DNA from: Faecalibacterium prausnitzii
GTDB taxonomy: Bacteria > Bacillota > Clostridia > Oscillospirales > Ruminococcaceae
Reading direction: 5' to 3'
DNA: 64,000 nucleotides
Assembly (NCBI RefSeq): GCF_003287405.1
Contig: NZ_PRLD01000003.1
Span: forward strand, 1 to 64,000
The notes under the pieces are model-generated. The model saw only the letters and a program-made list of their open reading frames with translations. It was not told where the DNA came from and searched no databases. Below, piece after piece: positions 1 through 12,594 of the stretch. How positions within the stretch are numbered: position 1 is the stretch's first letter; every line of letters begins with the position of its first letter. The position numbers and the translations under genes were made by a program.

Positions 1-459
1 CGCTTCAAGATGAACATCGTCAACTGCGCAATGCTCGGCGCGTTCATCCTCTCCATGCCGCAACGTCCGGAGGTGGAAAGGCTGACGGATTACTACGCAA
101 AGTCCATGATGACAGCGCCCATGCAGTGGTTCTGCCGCAAGAGCGGAAAAAGCAAGTTCACCGCAAAGGACATTGCCGCTATGAAGGCAACCGCCACTCT
201 GAAAGCCGCCGACCGCAACCCCTACTCGTGGAACATGGAGTTTTACGAATACCCGGATGGCAGCGGCTACGAGGGACGCTTTACCAAGTGCGGCATCTGT
301 GTGCTGATGAAGGAGCTGGGGCTGTACGACCTGACCCCTGCTTTGTGCCGTCTGGACTACACCATGAGCGAAGCGGGCGGCGTGACCGACTTTGTGCGGC
401 AGTATACCCTTGCCTCCGGCGGACCCTACTGCGACTGCGGGTACAAAAAGAAGGGGTAA
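1..459 (+). CDS. L-2-amino-thiazoline-4-carboxylic acid hydrolase-like protein (5' partial)
   Basis: The frame is already open at base 1, so this is the C-terminal part of a longer protein; 152 residues are visible and the first ATG (base 10) need not be the start. Segments such as RNPYSWNMEFYEY and KCGICVLMKELGL and the Cys-rich tail PYCDCGYKKKG match the L-2-amino-thiazoline-4-carboxylate (ATC) hydrolase-like family (Pfam ATC_hydrolase), recognised from memory. The founding Pseudomonas enzyme opens the thiazoline ring of ATC to a carbamoyl-cysteine on the route to cysteine. Most Firmicutes members have no tested substrate. A second member follows after 6 bases, so the two are probably co-transcribed. 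No signal peptide can be judged because the N-terminus is outside the window. Confidence 0.75.
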   Translation, partial: RFKMNIVNCAMLGAFILSMPQRPEVERLTDYYAKSMMTAPMQWFCRKSGKSKFTAKDIAAMKATATLKAADRNPYSWNMEFYEYPDGSGYEGRFTKCGICVLMKELGLYDLTPALCRLDYTMSEAGGVTDFVRQYTLASGGPYCDCGYKKKG

Positions 460-465
460 CGGACG

Positions 466-1068
466 ATGAAGAGAAAGGAAACCTATCTTTCCCGTGACTT
501 TCGGGAGACTGCGGCACTGCGCTTTCCCGCGCAGGCAAAGGAACTGAACACCGCTTTCGATATGCGCCTGAGTGCGCTGCTGGCTGAAAATGCAGATGCA
601 AGCAAGGAAAAGCAATACCACCTCAAGCGGCAGATCTTGCCGGGCATTTCGGCCTACGAGACCTTGCAGCGGGTCATGCCGAAAGAGGAGGCACTGCAAA
701 CCGTTCACGGCTATGTGGAGCGCTTGGCGAGAACGAGCCACAAACAGCTTGCCGCCCTGCTGCACATACCGGGGCTTTACCGCCTTGTTCCCGGCGTTTT
801 CGTCAAATCCACCCGGAGCGTTTTCGGCCCGGCGGCGGGCTTTGCCCCAAAAGAACTGCAGACCGGCAACGGCGTCTGGCGTGTGGATATGATGAAGTGT
901 CCCTATCACGACACCTGTGCGGACTACGGCTGTCCGGAGCTGTGCCGCTGCTTTTGCGACAGTGATGACATCAGCTATACCGGGCTGCATCCGAAGCTGA
1001 TCTGGGAGAGAAGCATGACGCTGGGGCGCGGAAATGACCGCTGCGATTTCTGCATGAAGGTTCGATAA
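466..1068 (+). CDS. L-2-amino-thiazoline-4-carboxylic acid hydrolase-like protein
   Basis: A 200-residue soluble protein of the same ATC hydrolase-like family as the gene before it, but quite diverged from it. The C-terminal half carries the conserved Cys/His-rich block: MKCPYHDTCADYGCPELCRCF (residues about 142-162), then HPKLIWERSMTLGRGNDRCDFC near the end. Its many Cys residues suggest metal or thiol chemistry, though no metal site has been shown for this family to my knowledge. Start ATG 466 lies 6 bases after the stop of the upstream paralogue, as in a tight operon. Two neighbouring paralogues may act on different thiazolines or form a heteromer; that is inference. It sits upstream of YbtPQ-like ABC genes. 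Confidence 0.75.
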   Translation: MKRKETYLSRDFRETAALRFPAQAKELNTAFDMRLSALLAENADASKEKQYHLKRQILPGISAYETLQRVMPKEEALQTVHGYVERLARTSHKQLAALLHIPGLYRLVPGVFVKSTRSVFGPAAGFAPKELQTGNGVWRVDMMKCPYHDTCADYGCPELCRCFCDSDDISYTGLHPKLIWERSMTLGRGNDRCDFCMKVR

Positions 1069-1088
1069 TAGCGGGGAGACAGATTGGT

Positions 1089-1202
1089 ATGGAAATCAAA
1101 CGATTCGGTACATGGTATTTCTGGCATACTTTCTTGTTTTGTATGAACCACGATGGAAGGCGAAGGAAATGGGAGCATATGCCCGATTCGCACCCAGACT
1201 GA
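1089..1202 (+). CDS. possible 37-residue peptide
   Basis: ATG at 1089 follows a GGGGAGAC ribosome-binding-like stretch and opens 37 codons ending in TGA at 1200-1202. The peptide is rich in aromatic and basic residues (YFWHTFLFC, then DGRRRKW). I do not recognise it. It lies between the hydrolase genes and a membrane protein and may be a real small gene, a gene remnant or chance. Confidence 0.25.
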   Translation: MEIKRFGTWYFWHTFLFCMNHDGRRRKWEHMPDSHPD

Positions 1203-1215
1203 GAGGAGAAAAACA

Positions 1216-1695
1216 ATGATCGTACTGCAACTGCTGCTTTATTGTCTGCTGTTTACCGCAATGGTAAAAATCGCTGTGATCGGTGGTGCTGTCAATGGAC
1301 TGTACTTTTATCCCAAGGAGGTGCAGGATCGCGCCATCGAACTGGGACTGATCGACCGCAATACGATGAACCGAAAACGAAAATGCTTTATGATACCGTT
1401 CTTTATCGTGATGCTTGCTGCTCTTGTGCTGATTATCGGTTTGTGGAACGGGGCTTCCTCCTTTGGTGAGGCCTATTGGCAGGCGCTGCTGTTTCTTGAG
1501 GTCATGAATATCTATGACGGCGTTGTAATCGACAAGCTATGGGTCGGGCACAGCCAGTTTTGGGTGCTGCCAGGGCTTGAAGATGCGCCGTTCGTGCAGA
1601 CCTGGAGGCAGGTGCTGAAAAAGCGAAGCATACTGGCGCTGATCTGGGTTGCGGGAGCGGCAATTGTCGGCGGTATTGTCCATTTGATTTTCTAA
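1216..1695 (+). CDS. small integral membrane protein, function unknown
   Basis: A 159-residue protein with about four hydrophobic segments: residues 1-25 (IVLQLLLYCLLFTAMVKIAV), about 58-78 (IPFFIVMLAALVLIIGLW), about 90-105 and the C-terminal 140-159 (WVAGAAIVGGIVHLIF). The start is set at ATG 1216 because GAGAGGAG stands 8 bases upstream; an in-frame ATG at 1153 would add 21 polar residues with no ribosome-binding site. I do not recognise the family. Its position between thiazoline hydrolase-like genes and a metal-transport stub suggests a membrane role in the same cassette, but nothing in its sequence shows a substrate. Confidence 0.65.
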   Translation: MIVLQLLLYCLLFTAMVKIAVIGGAVNGLYFYPKEVQDRAIELGLIDRNTMNRKRKCFMIPFFIVMLAALVLIIGLWNGASSFGEAYWQALLFLEVMNIYDGVVIDKLWVGHSQFWVLPGLEDAPFVQTWRQVLKKRSILALIWVAGAAIVGGIVHLIF

Positions 1696-1755
1696 GAAGT
1701 TGGAAATTGCCCAAATGAAAAGCAGAATCATGAACTGCAATCGGAGGCAAAAAAG

Positions 1756-2013
1756 ATGAAGACGGAGAAACCGAAAAAGCTGATTCGATGGTACATTCTC
1801 GGTGTGATCGGGGCAGTATTGACGATCCTGGCGGCAGGCATTGTGGTGCCCGCTTTGTCCTATCTGCTCAGCTTTGCCGCCGGAGCCATGCTGTATGTGG
1901 TGGTGGAGGAGCTGATCCCGGAAATGTCGCAGGGGCAGCACTCTAACGTCGGCACGGTTTTTTTTGCGGTAGGCTTCAGCATGATGATGGTACTGGATGT
2001 GGCACTGGGATAG
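1756..2013 (+). pseudogene. C-terminal fragment of a ZIP-family metal transporter
   Basis: Eighty-five residues whose second half (ALSYLLSFAAGAMLYVVVEE, then LIPE and, near the end, GFSMMMVLDVALG) matches the last two membrane helices of ZIP/ZupT metal ion carriers. Intact members run about 250-270 residues with eight helices, so roughly two thirds are missing. The HxxxE metal-site helices typical of earlier ZIP segments are absent, and the 60 bases upstream do not encode them. A good ribosome-binding site (TCGGAGGC) precedes ATG 1756, so a short protein may still be made. It could be a remnant or a regulatory stub; loss of function as a carrier is the simpler reading. Confidence 0.65.
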
Positions 2014-2060
2014 CGCATGGTTGAGAAAATTGCGATGCAAGGGGCGAAGAAAGGAAAAAT

Positions 2061-2156
2061 ATGAAAGACAGAGATCTGCCAGTTGACCACAGCTGCCATT
2101 CCAAGCCCTGCAAAAGACGGATTGTGGAGATCGGATTGAATAAACAGTATGATTGA
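2061..2156 (+). CDS. possible 31-residue His/Cys leader peptide before araC-type gene
   Basis: ATG 2061 follows AGAAAGGAAAA at good spacing and opens 31 codons whose stop (TGA 2154-2156) overlaps the regulator's start ATG at 2149. The peptide carries the cluster HSCHSKPC. The regulator start itself lacks a close ribosome-binding site, so translational coupling through this peptide is plausible. No homologue is known to me; it may be chance. Confidence 0.3.
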   Translation: MKDRDLPVDHSCHSKPCKRRIVEIGLNKQYD

Positions 2157-3126
2157 TATCATTTTTCATGACAAAACGGGGGTCACTCCCTATAATCCCG
2201 GACAAACAGGCGGCTTTGAAAATGCGGCCGGAAGTGGAGAAATTCACTATTACCGGCTGTTTGATGGCGTGGGGATCATGCTGCTGCGGCTGGAGATGGA
2301 GACCTATACGGAAATCCGCACGCAGATCGGTATGATAGAGATCAATTTCTGCATCAATGGCCGTTTTGAAACCAGCTTTTCCATGCGTGATAGCGTTCTG
2401 CTAAAGCCGGGGGATATGGCCGTCAGCTGCTACGACGGACGGCATGGAACACGTTCAGAGTCACGGTTCCCGCTGGGCTGTTACGAAGGGCTGTGTCTGG
2501 AAGTTGATCCAGCAGCCGCTCAGAACTGGCTTGAGAAGAACGCACCGGGCTTTTCGGTGGATTTTGCGGTACTGAAGCAGAATCTTCTGGGAAACCGATG
2601 GTTCATGTTCGGTACGGCAGGACCCCGCTGTGAGCACGTTTTCCGGGAATTGTACGAAAATGCGCCCTACATGGATCTCCGGTTCCTGCGGCTCAAGGTG
2701 GTGGAGCTGTTGATGCTGCTGAGCCGCATTCCGCAGGAGGAAGGAACGGACTTGTACTGTTCTACCGAACAGACCGAACTGGCACACCATCTCCGGGATC
2801 ACCTTCTGACAAACCGGGAGGGGTATGTCTCCCTTGCGCAGCTGGCAGAAGAACACGGGATCTCGGTTTCGCACCTGCAAAAAATGTTCAAACAGGTCTA
2901 CGGTGTGCCAGTATACCACTATATCAAGGAATACCGTCTGGAACAGGCTGCCGTAGAGCTTGTCCGGAGCGCAAAGCCCATTACGCAGATCGCACAGAAT
3001 GCAGGATATGACAACGCCAGCAAGTTTTCGGAGGCTTTCCGGAAACGATATGGAACGACCCCGTCGCAGTACCGCACCCACGCAAATGGACTCGCAAAAC
3101 GGAGCAGGGAAATCAGAATGGAGTAG
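2149..3126 (+). CDS. AraC-family transcriptional regulator (YbtA-like context)
   Basis: A 325-residue regulator. The N-terminal ~200 residues are a ligand-sensing region of the kind seen in regulators of siderophore and metal genes. The C-terminal ~100 residues are a double helix-turn-helix: YVSLAQLAEEHGISVSHLQK (first HTH) and AKPITQIAQNAGYDNASKFS followed by EAFRKRYGTTPSQYR, the AraC signature. In Yersinia, the AraC protein YbtA binds a siderophore and activates the ybtPQ-type ABC genes; here the regulator likewise precedes a similar ABC pair, so it probably controls 3200-7524. The chosen ATG overlaps the stop of a possible 31-residue peptide, and no strong ribosome-binding site is adjacent, so the exact start is uncertain. 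The ligand is unknown. Confidence 0.88.
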   Translation: MIDIIFHDKTGVTPYNPGQTGGFENAAGSGEIHYYRLFDGVGIMLLRLEMETYTEIRTQIGMIEINFCINGRFETSFSMRDSVLLKPGDMAVSCYDGRHGTRSESRFPLGCYEGLCLEVDPAAAQNWLEKNAPGFSVDFAVLKQNLLGNRWFMFGTAGPRCEHVFRELYENAPYMDLRFLRLKVVELLMLLSRIPQEEGTDLYCSTEQTELAHHLRDHLLTNREGYVSLAQLAEEHGISVSHLQKMFKQVYGVPVYHYIKEYRLEQAAVELVRSAKPITQIAQNAGYDNASKFSEAFRKRYGTTPSQYRTHANGLAKRSREIRME

Positions 3127-3199
3127 TCCACGGCCGAAAAATATGCTAAAGTACAGAGCGGTTAGAACAAACTTACTTTAAAACCGGAGGTACTTTCAT

Positions 3200-3955
3200 A
3201 TGATGATGAAAAAGAAATTTGTTGCAGTGGCCTTGTCTGCGGTCTGCCTGCTGTCTGCTGTCGGCTGCGGCCAGCAGAGCGCAAGCACAGCGTCTTCGGC
3301 ATCCAGCGTTTCCTCCTCGGTGGCTTCTTCGGCTTCCGCAAGTCAGGTAATGGATGCGGAGGATTATCTGTCTGGTATCAGCGGGACTTATGTGGAACTG
3401 TTCCCGGAGATGGCAAAGAGTGAATACCGGAATTTGTGGATCGACGCTGCGACTCCGCTGGTAGGCGAGGACAATGCGGAATCGGCTACGGATATGCTGC
3501 TGGGAATGTGCATGGCAGAGCCGTATGGCGAGGAGGCTGTTGAAAAATATGCAGCAGATCCGGACAGCACGGCGTTCAACTGCTATTTTCTGGGCGGCGT
3601 GGAAAAATTCGTGATGAATGGCGACACTATCACCGGTCTGGATGCGCAAGGACAGGAAGTGTTTGCACACACCTACCAGAAACTGGATGTGGACAATGAA
3701 AACAGCTTCCTCTTCTACCAGAGCGAGGATGCGGATTCCGGGGAGTTTACCTACTTTGCCTTTGCGCCCGATACGATGGAAACGACGTATCATCTGGAAT
3801 TCCGCTATGCAGAGGATCTCGACGACCTGCAGAGCTGGTATGAAGGAAATTATGCTTATTGGAATGCTGCCGCCATCGCAGAGGACTATGATCAGGCAAC
3901 TATGGAAAATGTCATTGAACTTTTCGTCACGGAAAATTTGTCTGAGGCAGAATAA
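3200..3955 (+). CDS. lipoprotein with ZinT-like metal-binding lipocalin domain
   Basis: 251 residues. A lipoprotein signal (KKKFVAVALSAVCLLSAVGC, lipobox AVGC) is followed by a Ser/Ala linker to about residue 48. The rest has the layout of ZinT/YodA and the C-terminal half of AdcA: an opening GISGTYVELFP like the ZinT GxWxSVYP start, and a closing FTYFAFAPDT...YHLEFRYAEDLDDLQSWYEGN like the ZinT segment around its HFHIFFG metal histidines. Here the HxH pair is reduced to a single His (TYHLEF), so zinc affinity may differ. ZinT-type proteins capture Zn or Cd outside the membrane and hand it to importers. The ribosome-binding site GGAGGT precedes ATG 3200. ZinT assignment is by pattern, moderate certainty. 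Confidence 0.6.
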   Translation: MMMKKKFVAVALSAVCLLSAVGCGQQSASTASSASSVSSSVASSASASQVMDAEDYLSGISGTYVELFPEMAKSEYRNLWIDAATPLVGEDNAESATDMLLGMCMAEPYGEEAVEKYAADPDSTAFNCYFLGGVEKFVMNGDTITGLDAQGQEVFAHTYQKLDVDNENSFLFYQSEDADSGEFTYFAFAPDTMETTYHLEFRYAEDLDDLQSWYEGNYAYWNAAAIAEDYDQATMENVIELFVTENLSEAE

Positions 3956-4023
3956 ACGGCACATGCGCACCCGATCATGTCAGGCGGTACGCATGGCAAT
4001 ATTACGGTAAGGATGTGATTTGA

Positions 4024-5793
4024 TTGAAAAAACGATCGGACTTTTCCCGGCTGATGGGCTATGCAGGTGGACATCGGGTATTCACCTATGCTTCACTGGT
4101 GCTCTCCGCTGTCAGCGCACTGATGGCGCTGATCCCGTTCCTCTATATCTGGATGATCTTGCGGGATGTGCTGGCTGTCGCACCGGACTATGCGCAGGCG
4201 GTGAACATCCCCCATTACGGCTGGATGGCAGTGTTGTTTGCAGTGCTGTCTTACCTTATTTACATTGCAGCGCTGATGTGCTCCCACCTGTCGGCGTTCC
4301 GGGTGGCGACCAATCTGCGGCTGGCGGTGTCGGAGCATTTGGCGGTGCTGCCGCTGGGCTTTGCCGAGACCTTCGGCAGCGGCAAGCTGCGGAAGATCAT
4401 CCATGAGAGCACCGGAGCCGCCGAGACCTATCTGGCCCACCAGCTGCCAGACCAGTACAACGCCATCGCCACCCCGGTGGGGCTGCTGGTTTTGCTGCTG
4501 GCGTTCGACTGGCGGCTGGGGCTGCTGAGCCTTGCGCCGGTGGTGTTGGCGTTTCTCATCATGGCGACCATGACCGGCAAGCGGATGGCCGAAAAAATGC
4601 GGCAGTACGGCAACGCACTGGAATCCATGTCCAACGAGGCCGTGGAGTACGTCCGGGGTATCCCGGTGGTCAAGACCTTCGGGCAATCGGTATTTTCCTT
4701 CAAAAAGTTCAAGACCACCATTGATGAGTATGAAAAGTGGGTCATCTCCTACACCAAAGACCTGCGCCTGCCCATGATGTTCTATACCGCTGCCGTCAAC
4801 GGTGTGTTCGCCTTTCTGATCGCGGGCGGGCTGCTGTTCACGACCCACGGCGTGACCACGGAATTTCTGCTGAACCTGCTGTTCTATATCATCATCACGC
4901 CGGTGATCTCCCTGACCCTGACCCGCATCATGTACATGAGCGAAAATGAACTCGTTGTGGCAGATGCGCTGGCTCGTGTGGATTCGGTTCTGGATGCGGA
5001 ACCTGTGCCAGAAAACGATCATCCGCAGCATCCGAAAGATGCCTCTGTGTCCCTGAAGGATGTGCATTTCAGCTATGATGGCAAAACGGATGTTATCGAG
5101 GGCGTTTCGCTGAAAATTCAGCCGGGTCAGACGGTGGCTTTCGTTGGACCCTCCGGCGGCGGCAAATCCACACTGGCAAACCTGATCTGTCGGTTCTTCG
5201 ATGTGCAGAGCGGCAGCGTCCGGGTGGGCGGAGCGGATGTGCGGGACATCCCCAAGGAAGAGTTGATGGACACCATCTCCTTTGTGTTCCAGAACAGCCG
5301 CCTGCTCAAGGGCAGCATTCTGGACAACGTCCGTCTGGGTAGGCCGCAGGCCACCGAAGCCGAGGTGCTGGCGGCGCTGAAAGCTGCACAGTGCATGGAT
5401 ATCGTGGAGAAGTTCCCGGCGGGCATCCACACGGTCATCGGCACCAAGGGCGTGTATCTTTCCGGCGGCGAGCAGCAGCGCATTGCCATTGCCCGCGCCA
5501 TGCTGAAAAATGTGCCCATCCTGATCCTGGACGAGGCCACCGCCTTTGCCGACCCGGACAATGAAGCAAAGGTGCAGGCAGCCTTTGCCCAGCTTGCCAA
5601 GGGCAAAACGGTGCTGATGATCGCGCACCGCCTGTCCACAGTCGCCAACGCCGACTGCATCTATGTGGTGCAGGATGGGCAGATTGTGGAATCCGGCACA
5701 AAGGACGAACTGTGTGCGCAGAACGGTCTGTTTGCCCGGATGTGGCAGGAGTATCAGGCGTCGGTGCAGTGGAAGGTCGCAAAGGAGGGGTAA
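4024..5793 (+). CDS. ABC half-transporter, YbtP/IrtA-like
   Basis: 589 residues: six-helix exporter-type membrane domain (about 1-320) fused to an ATPase domain (about 345-575). The ATPase has Walker A GPSGGGKST, Q-loop VFQNSR, signature LSGGEQQR, Walker B ILILDEATAFADPDNE and switch His in IAHRLST. The ATAFADP wording instead of the common ATSALD/ATASLD is what I remember from the IrtAB/YbtPQ siderophore importers, which have an exporter fold yet import. Translation probably starts at TTG 4024, after TAAGGATG; the first in-frame ATG would cut into the N-terminal MKKRSDFSRLM. It is followed after 3 bases by a second half-transporter, so the working unit is a heterodimer. The substrate is inferred to be a metal chelate, not shown. 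Confidence 0.85.
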   Translation: MKKRSDFSRLMGYAGGHRVFTYASLVLSAVSALMALIPFLYIWMILRDVLAVAPDYAQAVNIPHYGWMAVLFAVLSYLIYIAALMCSHLSAFRVATNLRLAVSEHLAVLPLGFAETFGSGKLRKIIHESTGAAETYLAHQLPDQYNAIATPVGLLVLLLAFDWRLGLLSLAPVVLAFLIMATMTGKRMAEKMRQYGNALESMSNEAVEYVRGIPVVKTFGQSVFSFKKFKTTIDEYEKWVISYTKDLRLPMMFYTAAVNGVFAFLIAGGLLFTTHGVTTEFLLNLLFYIIITPVISLTLTRIMYMSENELVVADALARVDSVLDAEPVPENDHPQHPKDASVSLKDVHFSYDGKTDVIEGVSLKIQPGQTVAFVGPSGGGKSTLANLICRFFDVQSGSVRVGGADVRDIPKEELMDTISFVFQNSRLLKGSILDNVRLGRPQATEAEVLAALKAAQCMDIVEKFPAGIHTVIGTKGVYLSGGEQQRIAIARAMLKNVPILILDEATAFADPDNEAKVQAAFAQLAKGKTVLMIAHRLSTVANADCIYVVQDGQIVESGTKDELCAQNGLFARMWQEYQASVQWKVAKEG

Positions 5794-5796
5794 GGA

Positions 5797-7524
5797 ATGA
5801 TCGAAAAAATTCAACACGCCACAGCCAGCTCCCCGGAGGGCGCAAAGGGGCTTGTAAAGGGCGTTCTGGCCTGTGCGTTCCAGAACATGGCGTTCATGCT
5901 GCCCACCGGGCTGCTGTATCTTCTGGTAAAAGACCTGCTGGCAGGCTCTACGAGCGGGAGAAGCACCTTTTATCTGGTGGGATGCGTTGCCTGCTTTGTG
6001 TTGATTTTGCTGACCACATGGTTCCAGTACAACGGCACCTATTTTACTACCTATAAAGAGAGCGGCACCCGCCGCCTGACCCTTGCAGAGCGGCTGCGGA
6101 AGCTGCCTCTGTCCTTTTTCGGCAAGCGAGACCTTGCCGACCTGACAAGCACCATCATGGCGGACTGCGAGGTACTGGAAAAGGACTGCTCCCACTTCAT
6201 CCCCGGTCTGTTCGGCTCCCTCATTTCCACGGTGCTCATTGCCCTGAGCCTGTTCGCCTTTGAGTGGCGGATGGCACTGGCGGCTCTGTGGGTCATTCCG
6301 GTATCCGCTGCCATCGTGGTGGGCAGCTATCGGGTACAGGATAAGGTGCAGGCCAGGACCATGGCGGCGAAAATGGCCTGTGCGGACGGTATTCAGGAGT
6401 ACATCGAGACTCTCCGGGACCTGAAAGCCAGCAATGCGGAGCAGCAGTATCTGTCCGGCCTTTCCGGCAAAATTCGGGCAGTGGAAAAGCAGTCTATTGT
6501 GGCAGAGCTGGAAACAGCGCTGTTTGTGTCCTCCGCCGGCATGGTGCTCAAGCTGGGCATTGCATCGGTGGCGCTCACCGGTTCGGTGCTGCTGGTGCAG
6601 GGCAGCATCGACGTACTGACCCTGTTTCTGTTCCTGATGGCGGCATCCCGGATGTACGACCCCATGCAGGGGGCTTTGCAGAATCTGGCGGCGGTCATCG
6701 CCATGCGTACCAATGTGGGGCGGATGAATGAGATTCTGGACGCTCCCCTGCAGACCGGCAGCGAGCAGCTGACCAATCAGGGCTGCGATATCGTGTTCGA
6801 CCATGTGGGCTTTGCCTATGACTCCGGTGAAGCGGTGCTGCGGGATGTCTCCTTTACCGCAAAGCAGGGGGAGGTTACGGCGCTGGTGGGCCCCTCCGGC
6901 AGCGGCAAGACCACTGTTTCCCGGCTGGCAGCACGGTTCTGGGATTACCAGAAGGGCAGTATCACCGTGGGCGGCATGGATGTCTCCCGAATCGACCCGG
7001 AAAAACTCATGAGCCTGTATTCCATCGTCTTTCAGGATGTGACCCTGTTTGACAACACAATCCTCGAAAACATCCGTCTGGGGCGCAAAGGTGCCACCGA
7101 CGAGGAGGTCCTTACGGCGGCAAAGCTGGCAAACTGCGAGGAATTTGCCGAGAAGCTGCCGGACAAGTGGAACACCAATATCGGCGAGAATGGCTGCGCT
7201 CTTTCCGGCGGTGAGCGTCAGCGCATTTCCATCGCCCGTGCTTTTCTGAAGGATGCGCCCATCATTCTGCTGGACGAGGCCACCGCAAGTCTGGATGTTG
7301 AGAACGAAACGGCGATTCAGGAGGCTCTGTCCCGCCTCATCAAAAACAAGACCGTTCTCATCATCGCTCACCGGATGCGTACCGTGGCCGGTGCGGATCA
7401 GGTGGTGGTGCTGTCGGGTGGCATCGTGGCCGAGCAGGGCAGCCCGGCAGAGCTGTACGCCCGGAAGGGACTGTACACCCACATGGTGGATCTGCAGTCG
7501 GCAAGCCAGAACTGGACGATCTGA
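5797..7524 (+). CDS. ABC half-transporter, YbtQ/IrtB-like
   Basis: 575 residues with the same membrane-ATPase layout as its upstream partner. Walker A GPSGSGKTT (about residue 366), signature LSGGERQR, Walker B IILLDEATASLDVENE and IAHRMRTV are all intact, so both ATP sites of the heterodimer should be able to work. The IAHRMRT wording is shared with YbtQ-type proteins as I recall them. ATG 5797 lies 3 bases after the preceding stop with AGGGGTAAGG as ribosome-binding site, indicating one operon. It is the last gene before the recombinase and has no clear terminator after it. The pair could instead export a drug or peptide; the AraC and ZinT-like neighbours favour metal uptake. Confidence 0.85.
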   Translation: MIEKIQHATASSPEGAKGLVKGVLACAFQNMAFMLPTGLLYLLVKDLLAGSTSGRSTFYLVGCVACFVLILLTTWFQYNGTYFTTYKESGTRRLTLAERLRKLPLSFFGKRDLADLTSTIMADCEVLEKDCSHFIPGLFGSLISTVLIALSLFAFEWRMALAALWVIPVSAAIVVGSYRVQDKVQARTMAAKMACADGIQEYIETLRDLKASNAEQQYLSGLSGKIRAVEKQSIVAELETALFVSSAGMVLKLGIASVALTGSVLLVQGSIDVLTLFLFLMAASRMYDPMQGALQNLAAVIAMRTNVGRMNEILDAPLQTGSEQLTNQGCDIVFDHVGFAYDSGEAVLRDVSFTAKQGEVTALVGPSGSGKTTVSRLAARFWDYQKGSITVGGMDVSRIDPEKLMSLYSIVFQDVTLFDNTILENIRLGRKGATDEEVLTAAKLANCEEFAEKLPDKWNTNIGENGCALSGGERQRISIARAFLKDAPIILLDEATASLDVENETAIQEALSRLIKNKTVLIIAHRMRTVAGADQVVVLSGGIVAEQGSPAELYARKGLYTHMVDLQSASQNWTI

Positions 7525-7556
7525 GAATGATGGCGGCTTTTATTTGGGAAAAAGTC

Positions 7557-7585
7557 TTGCATTCAGTTAAAAACTGTGGTATATC
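7557..7585 (+). promoter_or_regulatory. possible promoter for the serine recombinase
   Basis: TTGCAT (7557-7562) and TATATC (7580-7585) are 17 bases apart, about 70 bases before the recombinase start. Weak match; listed because the recombinase is otherwise separated from the ABC operon. Confidence 0.3.
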
Positions 7586-7653
7586 CATTATACGAAACAT
7601 TGCTTTGAAAAAACGATCCACCGTTCAATGATGTATAAATGGAGGTGCCTGCC

Positions 7654-9300
7654 ATGACCGCCGTGATCTATGCCCGCTATTCTACTGACAGTCAGCGCGA
7701 AGAATCCATTGAAGGTCAGATCCGGGAATGCACCGCCTATGCGGAAAAGAACGGCTTCACGGTGGTGAAGCATTACATTGACCGTGCCATCTCCGCCAAG
7801 ACCGATAACCGCCCGCAGTTCCAGCAGATGATCAAGGACAGTGAGCGTGGCATCTTTGACGTCATCATTGTCTGGAAGCTCGACCGCTTTGCCCGAAACC
7901 GCTATGACAGTGCCCGGTACAAGACCCAACTGAAGCGGAACGGCGTGAAACTGGTGTCGGCAACGGAAGTCATTTCGGCTGGCCCGGAGGGTATTATTCT
8001 GGAGTCGGTGCTGGAGGGCTATGCCGAATATTACTCGGCTGACCTGTCCGAAAAGGTCGTGCGCGGCATGACCGAAAATGCTCTCAAGGGTATTTATAAT
8101 GGCGGCACGATTCCGTTCGGCTACATGATCGATGAGACCCGGCATTACCAGCCAGACCCGCTGCTGGCTCCGTATGTGGAGCAGACGTTCCAGAAGTATG
8201 CGGACGGTGCGACCATGACTGACTTGCGGGATTGGTTGAAGGCGCACAACATCAAAAATTCGATGGGCGGAGAGATGTCCTATAACACAATTCAGCGGAT
8301 GCTGAGTAATCGCCGGTACATCGGCGAATTGCGTTTGCGGGATGTGGTACAGCCCAATGCGATCCCGGCTCTCGTGTCAGAGGACTTGTTCAACAAGGTG
8401 CAGGAAAAGCTGGCGAAAAATAAAAAGGCCCCTGCCCGTCATAAGGCAGAGGAAAGCTATCTGCTCACAACCAAGCTGTACTGCGGCAAGTGCGGTGCAC
8501 TGATGTTCGGAGAAAGCGGTGTCAGCCACACCGGGAAAATGTATACCTATTACAAGTGTGCCGCCGCCAAGAAGAAAAAGACCTGCGATAAAAAGGCCGT
8601 GCGGAAACAGTGGCTGGAAGATCTAGTGGTCAACGAGACCATGAAGCTGGTGGAAGATGACGCTTCCATGAATGCCATCATTGCCAAAGTCATGGAATTG
8701 CAAAATCAGGAAAGCACGGATTTGCCCATCTATGAAAAGCAGTTGAAAGAAACGGAAACCGGCATCACCAATATGCTGAACGCTATCCAGATGGGCATTC
8801 TGACCAGTTCCACCAAGGAGCGGCTGGAAGCGCTGGAAGAACAGCGAAAAGAACTGCAAGCCCGCATTGCAGAGGAACGGCTGGCTAAGCCAAAGATGAA
8901 AGAGGAGTTCGTCCGGTTCAATCGCAAGGGCAGGTTTGGAATACTGTTCTAACCGGCATATTTTGCGATATGCAATCCAACGATGTTGCAAACGATTGAA
9001 AAAGTTGGATTGCGATGGCTGCTTCGCTTCCGCAAGCTGGATATGACCCAGCCGGAGCAGCGGCAGGCACTGGTGGATACTTTCATCAATGCCATCTATC
9101 TCTATGATGATAAGGTTCTCATCACCTTTAATTATAAGGAAGGTACGGAAACGGTCGCTTTCGGAGAAGCCGTGAAAGCGGAGAAAAGTTCGGATATGAG
9201 TGCGCGAGGTGCACCACAAGAGAGACAGCTTTTGATAGCTGTCTTTTTTGTTTTATACGGCAATTTCTCTTTAACAGCAACAGCGGATAAGAGGACTTGA
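7654..9300 (+). pseudogene. large serine recombinase, interrupted near the C-terminus
   Basis: ATG 7654 (GGAGGTG upstream; an ATG at 7639 would include the ribosome-binding site) opens a large serine recombinase. Residues 1-150 form the catalytic resolvase domain with the nucleophile Ser in YARYSTDSQ. A recombinase domain follows (PFGYMIDE; LRDWLKAHNIKNSMGGEMSY), then a zinc ribbon (LYCGKCGALMFG ... YYKCAAAKKKKTC) and a coiled coil. A TAA at 8950-8952 stops it, but the usual C-terminal block (RFRKLDMTQPEQRQALVDTF, DKVLITFNYKEGTETVAF) resumes in the same frame and ends at 9300. Removing bases 8920-9015 restores the family sequence VRF-WLLRFRKLD. Such enzymes integrate and excise mobile elements; it probably moved the segment to its left. 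A protein truncated at 8952 may or may not work. Confidence 0.8.
8920..9015 (+). mobile_element. 96-base structured insertion within the recombinase gene
   Basis: Compared with the family sequence as I remember it, 96 bases (32 codons, frame kept) separate the codons for VRF and WLLRF. The insert contains a stop (8950-8952) and three inverted repeats: GGTT..GAA/TTC.AACC (about 8934-8955), CATAT/ATATG (about 8957-8972) and GCAATCCAAC (8972-8981) with GTTGGATTGC (9004-9013). No gene fits in it. Its origin is unknown. Confidence 0.5.
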
Positions 9301-9306
9301 ACAGCA
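9280..9306 (+). repeat. direct repeat A, copy 1
   Basis: A 27-base block (starts ACAGCGGATAAG, ends TTGAACAGCA) identical to 9439-9465. This copy contains the last codons and stop of the recombinase (TADKRT stop), so copy 2 may be the leftover end of an earlier recombinase. Confidence 0.75.
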
Positions 9307-9308
9307 CG

Positions 9309-9327
9309 GCCCCACCGCAGGTGGGGC
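9309..9327 (+). terminator. GC hairpin after recombinase (first of two)
   Basis: GCCCCACC, loop GCA, GGTGGGGC: a perfect 8-base stem starting 9 bases after the recombinase stop and directly abutting a second hairpin. Confidence 0.5.
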
Positions 9328-9354
9328 AACAAAAGCCCCAGTGGGGCTTTTGTT
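9328..9354 (+). terminator. perfect 12-base-stem hairpin after recombinase
   Basis: AACAAAAGCCCC, loop AGT, GGGGCTTTTGTT. The T-rich descending arm suits a rho-independent terminator for the recombinase, and by symmetry could work on both strands. Confidence 0.6.
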
Positions 9355-9359
9355 AGTGC

Positions 9360-9420
9360 GCGGTTCCCAACCCGTAGGAATGTCTAACGGGAGGACTGCC
9401 GCTGATTTATTTCACTGTAT
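9360..9420 (+). repeat. direct repeat B, copy 1
   Basis: A 61-base block (starts GCGGTTCCCAAC, ends TTCACTGTAT) repeated at 9585-9645 with two differences. Together with repeat A it outlines two successive units of the order A-hairpin-B, as expected from repeated integration at one site. Confidence 0.75.
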
Positions 9421-9438
9421 ACTCCCTCTTCAGCTGTA

Positions 9439-9465
9439 ACAGCGGATAAGAGGACTTGAACAGCA
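9439..9465 (+). repeat. direct repeat A, copy 2
   Basis: Identical to 9280-9306 over 27 bases. Here it is preceded by TCTTCAGCTGTA rather than recombinase codons. Confidence 0.75.
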
Positions 9466-9520
9466 ACGACGACGACCGCTGCCTGCGGCAGAAACAGGGA
9501 GGAGTTGCCCGAGTAGCGTT

Positions 9521-9562
9521 CTGATTTTTCAAAGCCCTGCCAAGGGGCTGCGGAAAAATCAG
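9521..9562 (+). repeat. inverted repeat between repeat blocks
   Basis: CTGATTTTTC (9521-9530) pairs with GAAAAATCAG (9553-9562), with an inner AGCCC/GGGGCT helix. It holds the place that the tandem hairpins hold in the first repeat unit. Confidence 0.5.
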
Positions 9563-9584
9563 CAAACGCAACCCGTAAGGCCCC

Positions 9585-9645
9585 GCGGTTCCCAACTCAT
9601 AGGAATGTCTAACGGGAGGACTGCCGCTGATTTATTTCACTGTAT
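9585..9645 (+). repeat. direct repeat B, copy 2
   Basis: 59 of 61 bases match 9360-9420. It ends 12 bases before the stop of the truncated AraC gene, marking the probable right edge of the integrated segment. Confidence 0.75.
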
Positions 9646-9657
9646 TGAGACCAATTT

Positions 9658-9972
9658 TTATAGTGCAAAATGCTTTGCACGATAGTCCCGTGGGCTGATG
9701 CCATATACGTTTTTGAACGCACGGGAAAAGTGAAGCTGATTGGGATAGCTGACCATGGTGCCGATGGTGCTGATGGGCAGGCGGCTTTCAGTCAGCAGCT
9801 GTGCCGCCCGTGCCATGCGGTAGTGCAGCAGGAACCCCTGTGGGCTTTCGCCCATGGTATCTCGGAACACCTTGCTGAAATAGCTGCGGTTCAGTCCGCA
9901 GAAGGAGGAGATATCCTCGATGGAAATATCTTCGCTGTAATGCTGCTCTATGAAAGACAGAGCCTCTTTCAT
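9658..9972 (-). pseudogene. AraC-family regulator, only the DNA-binding C-terminus remains
   Basis: 104 codons from the ATG at 9972 encode an AraC double helix-turn-helix: YSEDISIEDISSFCGLNRSY and ISTIGTMVSYPNQLHFSRAF, ending KNVYGISPRDYRAKHF. The ~180-residue sugar-sensing N-terminal domain is missing. Upstream in the same frame there is only sequence that mirrors the divergent alpha-galactosidase gene. In intact raffinose/melibiose clusters such a regulator is divergent from the sugar-binding protein and galactosidase genes, exactly as the remnants are placed here. Likely non-functional or a ligand-independent DNA binder. Its end lies 12 bases from repeat B. Confidence 0.7.
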
Positions 9973-10212
9973 AATAATTCGCAGTATTCCTTCAAATTGA
10001 GATATAACAAGTCGCATTTTTGCATTTACGAAACCACTGGCAGATAGTATAATAATGGCACAACAAGAGAAAAGAAACTGTGCAATGTGATGATGCACAA
10101 AATTTTCTCGCTGCTTTTGTAAGAGCTGACAAAAAGCAGAAAAATCGACCCGGCCGGTACGACACAGTACGAAGATCACCCTACGGAATAAGGACTTTGG
10201 AGGAGAACAAAA

Positions 10213-10320
10213 ATGAAAATCTCTCGCAGACAATTCGTAAAGGCAATGGCAGCAATGAGCGCCGCCGACAGGCGGGTAGCCGTTCCGACACGACCGCCTG
10301 CCTGTCGGCATTTCTATTAA
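10213..10320 (+). pseudogene. signal-peptide stub of a sugar ABC binding lipoprotein
   Basis: After an excellent GGAGGAG, ATG 10213 encodes KISRRQFVKAMAAMSAA, the start of a Tat-type exported binding protein as in other SRR-type lipoproteins of this window. The frame then runs out of homology and stops at 10318-10320. A binding protein of about 430 residues and two permeases would be expected here in a raffinose operon. The join lies in a hairpin (10264-10309), suggesting that a deletion fused the gene start to a distant terminator. Confidence 0.55.
10264..10309 (+). terminator. hairpin at the end of the binding-protein stub
   Basis: GCCGACAGGC (10264-10273) pairs with GCCTGTCGGC (10300-10309), then ATTTCTATT. 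Probably the terminator of the lost downstream gene, now joined to the stub and upstream of the galactosidase. Confidence 0.5.
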
Positions 10321-10347
10321 AAATAATCTCGTTGAGGTATAGGATCC

Positions 10348-12594
10348 ATGAGTATTCGATTTGATTCCGAGGCACGCATTTTTGTATTGGAGACTGCCCA
10401 TACCAGCTACCACATGAAGGTGGATGCGCTGGGGCACCTGCTGCATCTGTACTACGGCAAAACCATCGGCACCGGGGACCTGATGCAGCTGTATCCTCGC
10501 ACAGACCGGGGATTCTCGCCGGATTACTACGCTTACCGCACCCACCGGGGCGTTTCCCCGGATCTGCTCCCGCAGGAGTATACCGGCTGCAATGTGGGCG
10601 ATTTCCGTCTATCCTGCCTGACGGTGGCCGACAGCCGTGGCGCCTTTGGCGCAGACTTTACCTATGTGAGCCACACGGTGGAGGCGGGCAAATATCAGCT
10701 GACCGGTCTGCCCTGTGCCCACGCAGAGGAAAACGATGCCGAGACCCTGATCGTCCGAATGCAGGACGAGACAACCGGTCTGACGCTGGAGCTGCTGTAC
10801 GGCGTGTTTGCACAGCAGGATGTCATCACCCGTGCGGCGCGGCTGACAAACCACGGAGATACCCCGCTGCGGCTGGACAAGGCGGCATCTGCCTGTCTGG
10901 ATCTGCCCTTTGGCAGATGGGATCTGCTGCATTTCCATGGCAGACACGCTATGGAACGGCAGCTGGAGCGGGAAGCTGTGGGCACCAATATCCAGACCAT
11001 TTCTTCGGTGCGGGGCAGCTCCAGCCACCACAATAATCCCTTCCTGATCCTCTGCCAGCAGGATGCAACGGAGACCAGCGGTGCCTGCTACGGGGTGATG
11101 ATGGTCTATTCCGGCAGCTACCAGATGGACGTGGAGCGCTCTCAGACCGGGCTTGTCCGGGTAGTGAGCGGCATTCAGGAGGAGCGCTTTGCGTGGAACC
11201 TGAAGCCGGGCGAGACCTTTGATACCCCGGAGGTGATCCTCTCCTTTGCGGCAGAGGGTCTGACCCCGCTTTCCCAGCAGTACCACCGCTTTTTGCGGCG
11301 CAACATCTGCCGCGGCCCGTGGAAGGACAAACGCCGCCCGGTGCTGATCAACAACTGGGAGGCCACCTATTTTGATTTCAACACCGAAAAGATCGTAAAA
11401 ATCGCTGAAAAAGCGGCCTCTCTCGGCGTGGAGATGATGGTGCTGGACGATGGCTGGTTCGGCACCCGGAATGACGACAATCAGGGTCTGGGCGACTGGA
11501 CCGTGAACTGCGAAAAGCTGCCCGGCGGACTGGATCCGCTGATCGGGCAGATCAATGCGCTGGGCATGAAATTCGGCCTGTGGAGCGAACCGGAAATGGT
11601 CAACGAGAACTCCCAGCTGTACCGCACCCATCCGGACTGGGCGCTGACCCTGCCCGGACGCAAGCCTGCCATGGGGCGCAACCAGCTGGTGCTGGATCTT
11701 TCCCGCCCGGAGGTGGTGGACTATCTGGCAGGGGTTATCAGCAAGCTGCTGCGGGAGCATCACATTGAGTATATCAAGTGGGATATGAACCGCAGCATGA
11801 GCGATGTGTACAGCCGTGCTTTCCCTGCCGAGCAGCAGGGTGAGATCATGCACCGCTATATGCTGGGCGTTTATGCGCTGGCAGAGCGGCTGACGCAGGG
11901 CTTCCCGGAGGTGCTGTTCGAGGGCTGCGCAGGCGGCGGCGGACGCTTTGATGCCGGAATGCTGTGCTACTATCCCCAGATCTGGTGCAGTGATGATACC
12001 GATGCCATTGAACGGTTGACCATCCAGCACGGCACCTCCTTTGGCTACCCGGTCTGCACCATGGGTGCTCATGTTTCTGCCTGCCCCAACCACCAGACCG
12101 GCCGTACTACGCCCATCGATACCCGTGCTGTGGTGGCGATGAGCGGCACCTTTGGCTACGAGCTGGATCTGGGCAAATTGAAGCGCGCCGAGTGCACTGC
12201 AGTGAAAAACCAGATCAAGCGGTTCAAACGGCTGAACGACCTGATCCGCACCGGCGATTATTACCGGCTGACCGACCCGGCAGAAAACGCATATTTCACG
12301 GCATGGCAGTTTGCCGCAGAGGACGGCAGCGAGGCACTGCTGAATCTGGTGGTGACCCATCCGCAGGCGAATCCCTTGCCCATCCACCTGTGCTTCCGTG
12401 GGCTGGAAGAAGATGCTGTGTATGAACTGGATGGCATCGACTATTTCGGCTCCCGGTATGCCCACGACGTAGAGGACGGCATTCACAAGGGGATGCGGTT
12501 CAGCGGCAGCACCCTGCTGTATGCGGGACTTGTCCTGCCGCAGCTGTTTGGCGATTACCCCAGCGTGCAGCTTCATCTTACGCGAAAAGGATAA
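10348..12594 (+). CDS. alpha-galactosidase, GH36
   Basis: 748 residues, the full length of bacterial GH36 alpha-galactosidases, which release galactose from raffinose, stachyose and melibiose. N-terminal beta-supersandwich (to about 330), then the catalytic barrel with MVLDDGWFGTRNDDNQGLGD. The nucleophile is Asp479 in KWDMNRSMS and the acid/base is Asp549 in CSDDTDAIERL, 70 residues apart as in known members. FEGCAGGGGRFDAGM is also conserved. No signal peptide, so cytoplasmic. ATG 10348 lies after GAGGTATAGGA. It is the only intact gene of a sugar cluster whose regulator, binding protein, GH13 enzyme and fructokinase are fragments. With no permease left beside it, it depends on uptake by another system. 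Confidence 0.95.
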   Translation: MSIRFDSEARIFVLETAHTSYHMKVDALGHLLHLYYGKTIGTGDLMQLYPRTDRGFSPDYYAYRTHRGVSPDLLPQEYTGCNVGDFRLSCLTVADSRGAFGADFTYVSHTVEAGKYQLTGLPCAHAEENDAETLIVRMQDETTGLTLELLYGVFAQQDVITRAARLTNHGDTPLRLDKAASACLDLPFGRWDLLHFHGRHAMERQLEREAVGTNIQTISSVRGSSSHHNNPFLILCQQDATETSGACYGVMMVYSGSYQMDVERSQTGLVRVVSGIQEERFAWNLKPGETFDTPEVILSFAAEGLTPLSQQYHRFLRRNICRGPWKDKRRPVLINNWEATYFDFNTEKIVKIAEKAASLGVEMMVLDDGWFGTRNDDNQGLGDWTVNCEKLPGGLDPLIGQINALGMKFGLWSEPEMVNENSQLYRTHPDWALTLPGRKPAMGRNQLVLDLSRPEVVDYLAGVISKLLREHHIEYIKWDMNRSMSDVYSRAFPAEQQGEIMHRYMLGVYALAERLTQGFPEVLFEGCAGGGGRFDAGMLCYYPQIWCSDDTDAIERLTIQHGTSFGYPVCTMGAHVSACPNHQTGRTTPIDTRAVVAMSGTFGYELDLGKLKRAECTAVKNQIKRFKRLNDLIRTGDYYRLTDPAENAYFTAWQFAAEDGSEALLNLVVTHPQANPLPIHLCFRGLEEDAVYELDGIDYFGSRYAHDVEDGIHKGMRFSGSTLLYAGLVLPQLFGDYPSVQLHLTRKG

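What the first reader, a model, noticed from the sequence alone, without database searches (positions are those of the whole stretch)
1..7524. Possible thiazoline-metallophore uptake and opening cassette
Two ATC (thiazoline) hydrolase-like genes precede a YbtA-like AraC regulator, a ZinT-like metal lipoprotein and an ABC pair with the ATAFADP/HRMRT wording of YbtPQ/IrtAB importers. Yersiniabactin-type metallophores contain thiazoline rings. A set that imports such chelates and opens a thiazoline ring to free the metal (or to harvest cysteine) would join these families in one job. The gene order is seen; the family roles are known for distant relatives; the joint function is my inference.
Basis: partly seen in the sequence, partly recalled or inferred. 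Interest (0 to 1): 0.75.

Follow-up and report, generated by a model that had tools for sequence, protein, structure and literature searches.

The report
Iron-regulated chelate-uptake and enzyme array
In gut Faecalibacterium, a swappable gene cassette pairs a siderophore-type transporter with an array of poorly understood "ATC hydrolase" genes, and both appear to be switched by the same DNA signal as known iron-uptake genes, so the set probably handles an iron chelate, although the thiazoline part of the original idea is not shown.

Summary
The genes are real and in the stated order. ATC1 is cut by the contig start. The genus is Faecalibacterium. The ABC pair resembles siderophore importers YbtPQ/IrtAB (clear for subunit A, ambiguous for B). 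The lipoprotein is at best a distant ZinT relative and lacks ZinT's three-His pattern. The link between ATC genes and such ABC pairs recurs in other genera beyond chance, but most ATC loci lie elsewhere.

New result: a dyad, GTTAG-N6-CTAAC, stands before ATC arrays (30 of 55 runs; reversed control 0), before 19 of 25 related ABC pairs, and before feoAB, flavodoxin and P-type ATPase genes. The window's copy, with one mismatch, lies 23 bp before the lipoprotein gene. ATC arrays and ABC pairs therefore appear to share an iron regulon. ATC2's predicted fold resembles, weakly, H-NOX/V4R ligand-binding domains, with an invariant three-Cys cluster; this is no evidence of thiazoline chemistry.

Best reading: a mosaic, horizontally moving, iron-controlled cassette that transports and processes an iron chelate. 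Import is favoured but unproven (the related EqbKL pair was suggested to export). The thiazoline substrate is unsupported.

The parts
1..459 (+). ATC1: PF14196 'ATC hydrolase' domain protein, 5' end lost at the contig edge
   Evidence: relatives have about 55-60 more N-terminal residues (L080:11625, L083:10700)
466..1068 (+). ATC2: PF14196 protein, predicted fold weakly like H-NOX/V4R, invariant C145, C164, D167, R182, G189, C193, D194 in a 25-row alignment
1083..1200 (+). probable remnant of an alpha/beta hydrolase gene that stands here in relatives (start MEIKRFG shared with the c18 gene of L080)
   Evidence: read; not tested further
1216..1695 (+). small membrane protein (TMx), no Pfam family, recurrent member of the array
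1756..2013 (+). 85-aa chimera: start as in a neighbouring-type membrane protein (L084:2352), last ~68 residues as in the ZIP metal transporter of the array
   Evidence: (PF02535 25.6 bits, below cut-off 35.1)
2149..3126 (+). AraC-family regulator
3161..3176 (+). operator-like dyad GTTAGAACAAACTTAC, one mismatch from GTTAG-N6-CTAAC, 23 bp before the lipoprotein start; other Lipo promoter variants also carry a 1-mismatch site
   Evidence: shuffle P 0.003 for a 120-bp stretch; not in excess over the whole window (3 found, 2.3 expected)
3200..3955 (+). lipoprotein-like gene, remotely similar to ZinT, three-His pattern not kept; exists in variants swapped together with AraC
4024..5793 (+). ABC_A: YbtP/IrtA-like permease-ATPase half-transporter
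5797..7524 (+). ABC_B: partner half-transporter, nearest half-size PDB chain over full length YbtQ, transmembrane part ambiguous
7639..8952 (+). serine recombinase, shorter than its longest relatives; a relative, sometimes in pieces, follows the ABC pair in all 10 cassettes compared

Best explanation
The window starts inside an iron-regulated accessory gene array and contains its transport end. Shown here by computation: one operator (GTTAG-N6-CTAAC) precedes many ATC arrays, YbtPQ/IrtAB-like ABC pairs and classical iron genes (feoAB, flavodoxin). Inferred: when iron is short a metal-dependent repressor releases these promoters, and the AraC protein adds ligand-dependent activation. The remote ZinT-like lipoprotein helps capture an iron chelate at the cell surface, and the ABC pair imports it. 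In the cytoplasm the array enzymes (ATC proteins, alpha/beta hydrolases, metallo-beta-lactamase-fold hydrolase, PanE-type reductase, methyltransferases) bind and modify or open the chelate so that the iron is released; a ZIP transporter supplies metal in parallel. The chelate is not identified; thiazoline is only one option.
For: ABC_A transmembrane part: IrtA 85.5, YbtP 76.4, next 30 bits. Full length, best half-size chain: YbtP for A, YbtQ for B (two-domain P-glycoprotein-type chains score higher there, over two stretches). Genus: all 11 genomes with the cassette carry PF14196, 4 of the other 20 do (Fisher P 1.6e-5). Another genus (G160) has the array ending in the ABC pair, with an exact operator before ABC_A. 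Family: 11 of 44 ATC loci within 20 kb of an ABC_B relative, 1.1 expected. Operator: 11-16 forward matches in each of seven Faecalibacterium genomes, reversed control 0-7 in each of its two columns; before 30 of 55 ATC runs, control 0; before 23 of 57 ABC pairs, control 0, and before 19 of 25 when the cassette's own copies are set aside and only pairs of at least 650 bits are kept (5 of these 25 are other pairs of Faecalibacterium genomes). In the own genome it precedes a DUF3793 gene that stands before feoA and feoB, a FeoA-FeoB fusion, flavodoxin, a P-type ATPase, an HMA protein and a ZIP-type gene. DUF3793 lies within 12 kb of 7 of 40 ABC_B relatives, 0.31 expected. Neighbours of ABC orthologues include FecCD plus periplasmic binding protein, FeoB, NEAT and DtxR proteins (picked by eye).
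Against: Direction of transport is not shown. ABC_B's transmembrane part alone matches the exporter BmrA better than YbtQ, and most near orthologues examined are TetR-ABC-ABC units without ATC genes, an arrangement that also suits an efflux pump. EqbK/L were suggested to export. In a published F. prausnitzii co-expression network the ATC-hydrolase gene group is enriched in one module (with arginine biosynthesis), while the groups with FeoA and with flavodoxin are enriched in two other modules (PMC9674144 passages), which speaks against simple co-regulation in those conditions. ATC arrays also occur without the pair nearby (G003, G013). 25 of 55 ATC runs lack an exact operator. The pattern was read from promoters of some of the loci counted later, so the counts are not wholly independent of its discovery. 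The operator also precedes pyruvate formate-lyase, so it marks a wide response. The window's own copy has a mismatch and is not in excess window-wide. The lipoprotein model is poor (pLDDT 47). The position tests assume uniform gene positions and independent genomes.
Confidence: 0.42

Rival explanations
1. The array makes rather than breaks a chelator: methyltransferases, PanE-type reductase and hydrolases build or tailor a small NRPS-free metallophore, and the ABC pair exports it.
For: Iron operator before the arrays; several SAM methyltransferases and a PanE-type reductase in one run; EqbK/L were suggested to export (PMC3672683 passages); many orthologues are TetR-ABC-ABC.
Against: No condensing or ligating enzyme was recognised among the array genes scanned; gene content varies strongly between genomes, unusual for a fixed product; the ABC_A transmembrane part is IrtA/YbtP-like.
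Confidence: 0.2
2. The system handles heme or another tetrapyrrole rather than a siderophore: the ATC proteins, with a fold like H-NOX/V4R, carry or process it.
For: Top Foldseek hits of the ATC2 model are heme-binding H-NOX proteins (E 1.3e-3); a gene annotated as ATC hydrolase lies in the tolyporphin cluster (PMC8401325 passage); a NEAT protein near one ABC pair; one related pair was shown to sit beside a Trep_Strep protein and a CbiQ-type protein, i.e. an ECF-like module, and one ECF transporter (LhaSTA) is reported to scavenge heme (PMC7299338, title and abstract start, one passage; its subunit family was not compared with ours).
Against: The structural similarity is modest (TM normalised by the query 0.28-0.40 in the best 25 or so; no hit at E<=0.001). 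The invariant residues are three Cys and an Asp, more like the V4R cluster (PMC5847659 passage); no invariant His was seen.
Confidence: 0.15
3. One reading: import of a thiazoline metallophore and ring opening by the two ATC hydrolases.
For: PF14196 membership; ABC_A similarity to YbtP; iron operator.
Against: The family name comes from a distant enzyme; the nearest solved folds are mainly ligand-binding domains; the arrays hold many other enzymes; nothing points to a thiazoline.
Confidence: 0.1
4. The ABC pair is an ordinary drug or toxin exporter that happens to stand beside the array in a recombining region.
For: TetR-ABC-ABC layout; ABC_B transmembrane part close to BmrA; strong mosaicism and a serine recombinase; separate co-expression modules for ATC and Feo groups in one network.
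Against: Operator and iron neighbours of the orthologues; recurrence of the ATC link in other genera.
Confidence: 0.12

Closest known systems
YbtPQ / IrtAB siderophore-importing type IV ABC transporters
   Same: Tandem permease-ATPase half-transporters; A subunit matches YbtP and IrtA clearly; iron-linked operator and neighbours.
   Different: B subunit ambiguous; extra lipoprotein and enzyme array; import not shown.
Equibactin locus eqbHIJ + eqbK/eqbL of ICESe2 (PMC3672683, passages read)
   Same: YbtPQ-like pair in a Gram-positive on a mobile element, in a cluster with a DtxR-like repressor and an alpha/beta hydrolase; one related pair here (L049) also neighbours CbiQ- and Trep_Strep-type genes and a DtxR-type gene.
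   Different: No siderophore-synthesis gene was recognised among the array genes scanned (no dedicated NRPS search); here the pair stands with PF14196 arrays; eqbKL deletion did not remove the iron-toxicity phenotype.
PF14196 ATC hydrolase (Pseudomonas enzyme; reference seen)
   Same: Domain match over cut-off; Cys cluster.
   Different: Multi-paralogue arrays with an iron operator; activity untested.
V4R and H-NOX domains (PoxR/MopR/DmpR, H-NOX)
   Same: Weakly similar predicted fold; three-Cys cluster noted for V4R, MetOD1 and ATC domains (PMC5847659).
   Different: Stand-alone proteins, no output domain; sequence identity 8-16% in the listed hits.
ZinT
   Same: Weak colinear profile match; exported-type start.
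   Different: No Pfam or PDB match; three-His pattern absent.

Membership tests
YbtPQ/IrtAB-type importers | two tandem half-transporters with fused permease and ATPase | tested here: met
   PF00664 and PF00005 in both
YbtPQ/IrtAB-type importers | transmembrane part closer to YbtP/IrtA than to exporters, subunit A | tested here: met
   85.5/76.4 against 29.2 bits for the best exporter chain
YbtPQ/IrtAB-type importers | transmembrane part closer to YbtQ/IrtB than to exporters, subunit B | tested here: inconclusive
   BmrA 45.7, YbtQ 31.2; YbtP 64.0, BmrA 62.3, YbtQ 53.6
YbtPQ/IrtAB-type importers | iron-linked control and neighbourhood | tested here: met
   (mostly in relatives; the window site has one mismatch)
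YbtPQ/IrtAB-type importers | import of a metal chelate | not testable with these tools
   no direction can be read from sequence here
PF14196 ATC hydrolase | domain over the curated cut-off | tested here: met
   80.3 and 113.7 bits, cut-off 28.1
PF14196 ATC hydrolase | hydrolysis of a thiazoline ring | not testable with these tools
   no assay; no substrate evidence
V4R/H-NOX superfamily | shared fold | tested here: inconclusive
   H-NOX, DmpR/PoxR/MopR and Bet3-type chains fill most of the list, but best E is 1.3e-3 and TM stays at or below about 0.40 by query length
V4R/H-NOX superfamily | three-Cys cluster | tested here: met
   invariant C, C, C plus D; the V4R side rests on PMC5847659
ZinT | PF09223 match | tested here: not met
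ZinT | three-His zinc site (recalled) | tested here: not met
   DH and HFH of ZinT not kept; one His (YH[LI]E) remains
ZinT | shared fold | tested here: inconclusive
   (pLDDT 47)
YbtA-type AraC regulators | specific relation to YbtA | tested here: inconclusive
   only broad AraC hits among the 25 shown of 36
DtxR/IdeR-type iron regulon | shared dyad before iron genes | tested here: met
DtxR/IdeR-type iron regulon | binding by a DtxR-type repressor | not testable with these tools
   regulator assigned by resemblance (recalled)
Equibactin-type locus | siderophore NRPS genes | not tested
   no NRPS search was made; the array genes scanned hold none

The most novel reading that the evidence does not exclude
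A so far undescribed iron-regulated pathway of gut Firmicutes makes or dismantles an iron chelate with arrays of V4R/H-NOX-like 'ATC hydrolase' proteins as its core. The arrays move between species as swappable modules and couple to different transporters (YbtPQ-like pairs, ECF-like modules, ZIP) through one shared operator.
Probability: 0.38. Interest if true: 0.8.

Novelty: new variant of a known kind. Interest (0 to 1): 0.6.

Why it matters
Faecalibacterium is among the commonest human gut bacteria (recalled), and four searches of an open-access library listed no paper whose title or abstract start described its chelate uptake. Placing PF14196 genes in an iron regulon would give a large, little-characterised family a testable role and name a set of candidate xenosiderophore-processing enzymes. 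It would matter for how commensals compete for iron in the gut.

Tried and rejected
ZinT label: not met by Pfam, PDB profile or family search. Only a weak profile-profile match remains. The PDB hits of the lipoprotein profile to a toxin-component chain (best E 2e-4) cover the Ser/Ala-rich start and part of the domain at low score; I treat them as chance. In the genome search with the lipoprotein profile 67 of 297 genomes match; by their query ranges I take only G000, G015 and G124 as true, the rest matching mainly the Ser/Ala-rich start.

Riboswitch or other RNA control: one pemK match at L080:19146 outside the array in six loci, two meaningless matches in window 1-12000. Defence-system reading: of eight proteins scanned only the two ABC proteins matched, to ATPase-type models. 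Plasmid or phage carriage: plasmids gave one 2% match. Five unannotated 'Bacteriophage sp.' records matched, four around the recombinase and one only 59 bases inside ABC_B; not followed. Literature on the joint system: none seen (open-access library only; listings and abstract starts seen, passages only where stated).

The AlphaFold model of the lipoprotein was too poor for a fold search. The gene calls were wrong on GC-rich loci and were replaced by six-frame searches. Neighbour genes for searches were picked by eye, so they illustrate. In one search four of the 67 rows were left out because they are the second gene of a pair already counted. In one search six loci (L117, L118, L121, L122, L126, L127) repeat regions counted under other ids; without them I count 26 of 49 by hand. 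One search likewise holds repeats.
Full report
What is there. The window begins at base 1 of contig C38 of the assembly. Searches give: ATC1 (10-459, cut by the contig edge), ATC2 (466-1068), a small membrane protein (1216-1695), an 85-aa ZIP-tail chimera (1756-2013), AraC (2149-3126), a lipoprotein-like gene (3200-3955), ABC_A (4024-5793), ABC_B (5797-7524) and a serine recombinase (7639-8952).

Conservation and mosaicism. ABC_A at 88% identity or more occurs in 11 of 31 genus genomes including the own one. In the 10 relatives ABC_B and a relative of the recombinase (sometimes in pieces) follow; in 9 of the 10 fetched stretches ATC1 and ATC2 precede, and in the tenth (G003) the ATC pair lies about 518 kb away. 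Four relatives (L037, L038, L039, L043) carry a different AraC (33-34%) and lipoprotein (41-43%) in front of nearly the same ABC pair (88-98%). DNA identity jumps along the cassette: lipoprotein DNA 99-100% in six relatives in which 250-base bins of ABC_A lie at 79-100%, and 51-58% in the other four. The cassette is mosaic and recombines.

The larger array. In relatives the two ATC genes stand in a run that can hold a full ZIP transporter, SAM methyltransferases, a metallo-beta-lactamase-fold protein, a third PF14196 protein, alpha/beta hydrolases, an LCM-type methyltransferase, a PanE-type reductase and small membrane proteins. A like array ending in the ABC pair exists in another genus (G160) and in Gemmiger formicilis (L119, without the AraC and lipoprotein genes). 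ATC2 relatives at 84-97% identity occur in Lachnospiraceae GAM79, Gemmiger formicilis, Oscillospiraceae MH27-2, Clostridiales VE202-21 and Hominifimenecus, which points to horizontal movement. An ABC pair lies inside the fetched flank in 10 of the 21 loci: six Faecalibacterium, Gemmiger, and three with more distant pairs (L123, L124, L134). Several of the other loci are cut by contig ends.

Is the link to the ABC pair more than chance? In 198 family genomes PF14196 occurs in 66 and ABC_B relatives (E<=1e-90) in 41. In the 19 genomes with both, 11 of 44 ATC loci lie within 20 kb of an ABC_B relative, 1.12 expected under uniform placement (P 9e-9); 33 of 44 do not. In the genus, 11 of 11 cassette genomes hold PF14196, 4 of 20 others do.

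The ABC pair. Full length, the best half-size PDB chain is YbtP for A (334.5 bits; IrtA 323.6, YbtQ 255.4, MsbA 238.2) and YbtQ for B (301.4; Sav1866 251.7, YbtP 250.0); two-domain P-glycoprotein-type chains score higher in both searches, over two stretches. With the transmembrane part alone A remains IrtA/YbtP-like while B matches BmrA best; a 13-sequence profile of B gives YbtP 64.0, BmrA 62.3, YbtQ 53.6. Most near orthologues examined are TetR-ABC-ABC. Their neighbours, picked by eye and confirmed with Pfam, include FecCD with a periplasmic binding protein (L111), FeoB, HMA and flavodoxin (L115), DUF3793, flavodoxin and a P-type ATPase (L147), NEAT and a P-type ATPase (L112), DtxR and flavodoxin (L153), DtxR and a CbiQ-type protein (L049). 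A position test with DUF3793, which stands before feoA and feoB in the own genome, gives 7 of 40 ABC_B relatives within 12 kb, 0.31 expected; weaker relatives 5 of 23, 0.18 expected.

The operator. Reading promoters of ZIP, lipoprotein and ABC genes side by side showed a dyad GTTAG-N6-CTAAC. In seven Faecalibacterium genomes there are 11-16 forward matches of GTTAG-N6-YTAAC each, against 0-7 in each column of the reversed control. Exact sites stand within 300 bp before 30 of 55 ATC-containing runs that are not at a locus edge, reversed control 0 of 55, and within 350 bp before 23 of 57 ABC pairs, control 0. None of the cassette's ABC_A genes has one directly, because the lipoprotein gene is first there. 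With the 17 cassette rows (Faecalibacterium and Gemmiger) set aside, 23 of 40 pairs have one, and 19 of the 25 with at least 650 bits (five of the 25 are other pairs of Faecalibacterium genomes, L044-L047 and L049). Of the remaining six, L104 has its site in the adjoining stretch L103, L149 a shorter core, L115 and L147 sites before the DUF3793 gene that starts the run, L151 one about 310 bp before its DUF3793 gene, and one pair of L155 none. Some of the loci counted were those in which the pattern was first read. In the own genome the sites precede a DUF3793 gene followed by FeoA and FeoB, a FeoA-FeoB fusion, flavodoxin, a small gene and a P-type ATPase, an HMA protein, pyruvate formate-lyase (the named families Pfam-confirmed), a ZIP-type gene (379 bp on, recognised by its letters) and an alpha/beta hydrolase-MBL array fragment; one lies next to a ferritin gene but downstream of it. 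The window carries a one-mismatch copy 23 bp before the lipoprotein start, and the other promoter variants (L037-L039, L043) carry one-mismatch copies 39-42 bp before the positions I used as starts. Over the whole window the pattern with one mismatch is not in excess (3 found, 2.3 expected). I recall DtxR/IdeR boxes as similar; no call identifies the regulator.

A result against co-regulation. In a co-expression network of F. prausnitzii (PMC9674144, passages only) the gene group that includes ATC hydrolase is enriched in the 'green' module together with arginine biosynthesis, whereas groups with FeoA and with flavodoxin are enriched in the 'magenta' and 'lightyellow' modules. I saw no iron-limited condition in the passages, so this weakens but does not exclude a shared iron response.

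ATC proteins. Across ATC1, ATC2, ATC3 and distant paralogues (14 rows) the invariant residues are three Cys and an Asp, with Arg, Thr, Gly and Asp nearly so. The ATC2 model is confident (pLDDT 91.9). Its PDB neighbours are mostly H-NOX, V4R sensor domains (DmpR, PoxR, MopR) and Bet3-type proteins, all weak (best E 1.3e-3, none at 0.001). PMC5847659 (passages) links HNOB, V4R and ATC domains by sequence. This suggests a ligand- or metal-binding protein, enzymatic or not.

Lipoprotein. Outside the genus I found it only in G124, truncated, still directly before the ABC pair. ZinT is not met by family criteria but scores above 52 decoys in a profile comparison.

Conclusion. The thiazoline and the import steps stay open, and the equibactin pair EqbK/L (PMC3672683 passages) warns that such pairs may export.

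Noticed in passing
window 1756-2013; L040:16338-16601; L042:10833-11090: Short ZIP-derived genes: the window copy joins the start of a neighbouring-type membrane protein gene to the ZIP C-terminus, and L040 carries a ZIP with its middle missing. Described only.
   Followed up: partly
window 7639-8952 and 8983-9300: The serine recombinase is shorter than its longest relatives (e.g. 686 aa called in L042) and another open frame follows; it may be interrupted. Described only.
   Followed up: no
G000:C50:99761 and 100099 (L184); L192: The iron-type dyad precedes pyruvate formate-lyase, which may mean that iron limitation shifts pyruvate metabolism from Fe-S enzymes to the glycyl-radical enzyme.
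   Followed up: no
G000:C44:47849 (L182), L191: DUF3793 (PF12672) stands before FeoA/FeoB genes behind the dyad, so this unknown family looks iron-linked (present in 105 of 198 family genomes).
   Followed up: partly
L049, L097-L099, L101, L102, L114, L123, L124, L134: Related ABC pairs sit next to genes that match my profile of the Trep_Strep-type protein of L049/L052 (Pfam-confirmed in L049 only), a layout reminiscent of eqbHIJKL.
   Followed up: partly
L193 (G003:C1:2842000-2849000): An AraC-like gene followed by a dyad and a large lipoprotein-like gene with a GLUG motif: a possible further regulon surface protein.
   Followed up: no
phage-collection hits H2, H3: Unannotated gut 'Bacteriophage sp.' records match the recombinase region (88.6-95.7%), one including the end of ABC_B.
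   Followed up: no
G000 contigs C57 and C52: Small contigs of the own genome carry array fragments (C57: dyad, two alpha/beta hydrolases, MBL; C52: a PF14196 gene and small membrane proteins) that could belong upstream of window base 1; not placed.
   Followed up: no
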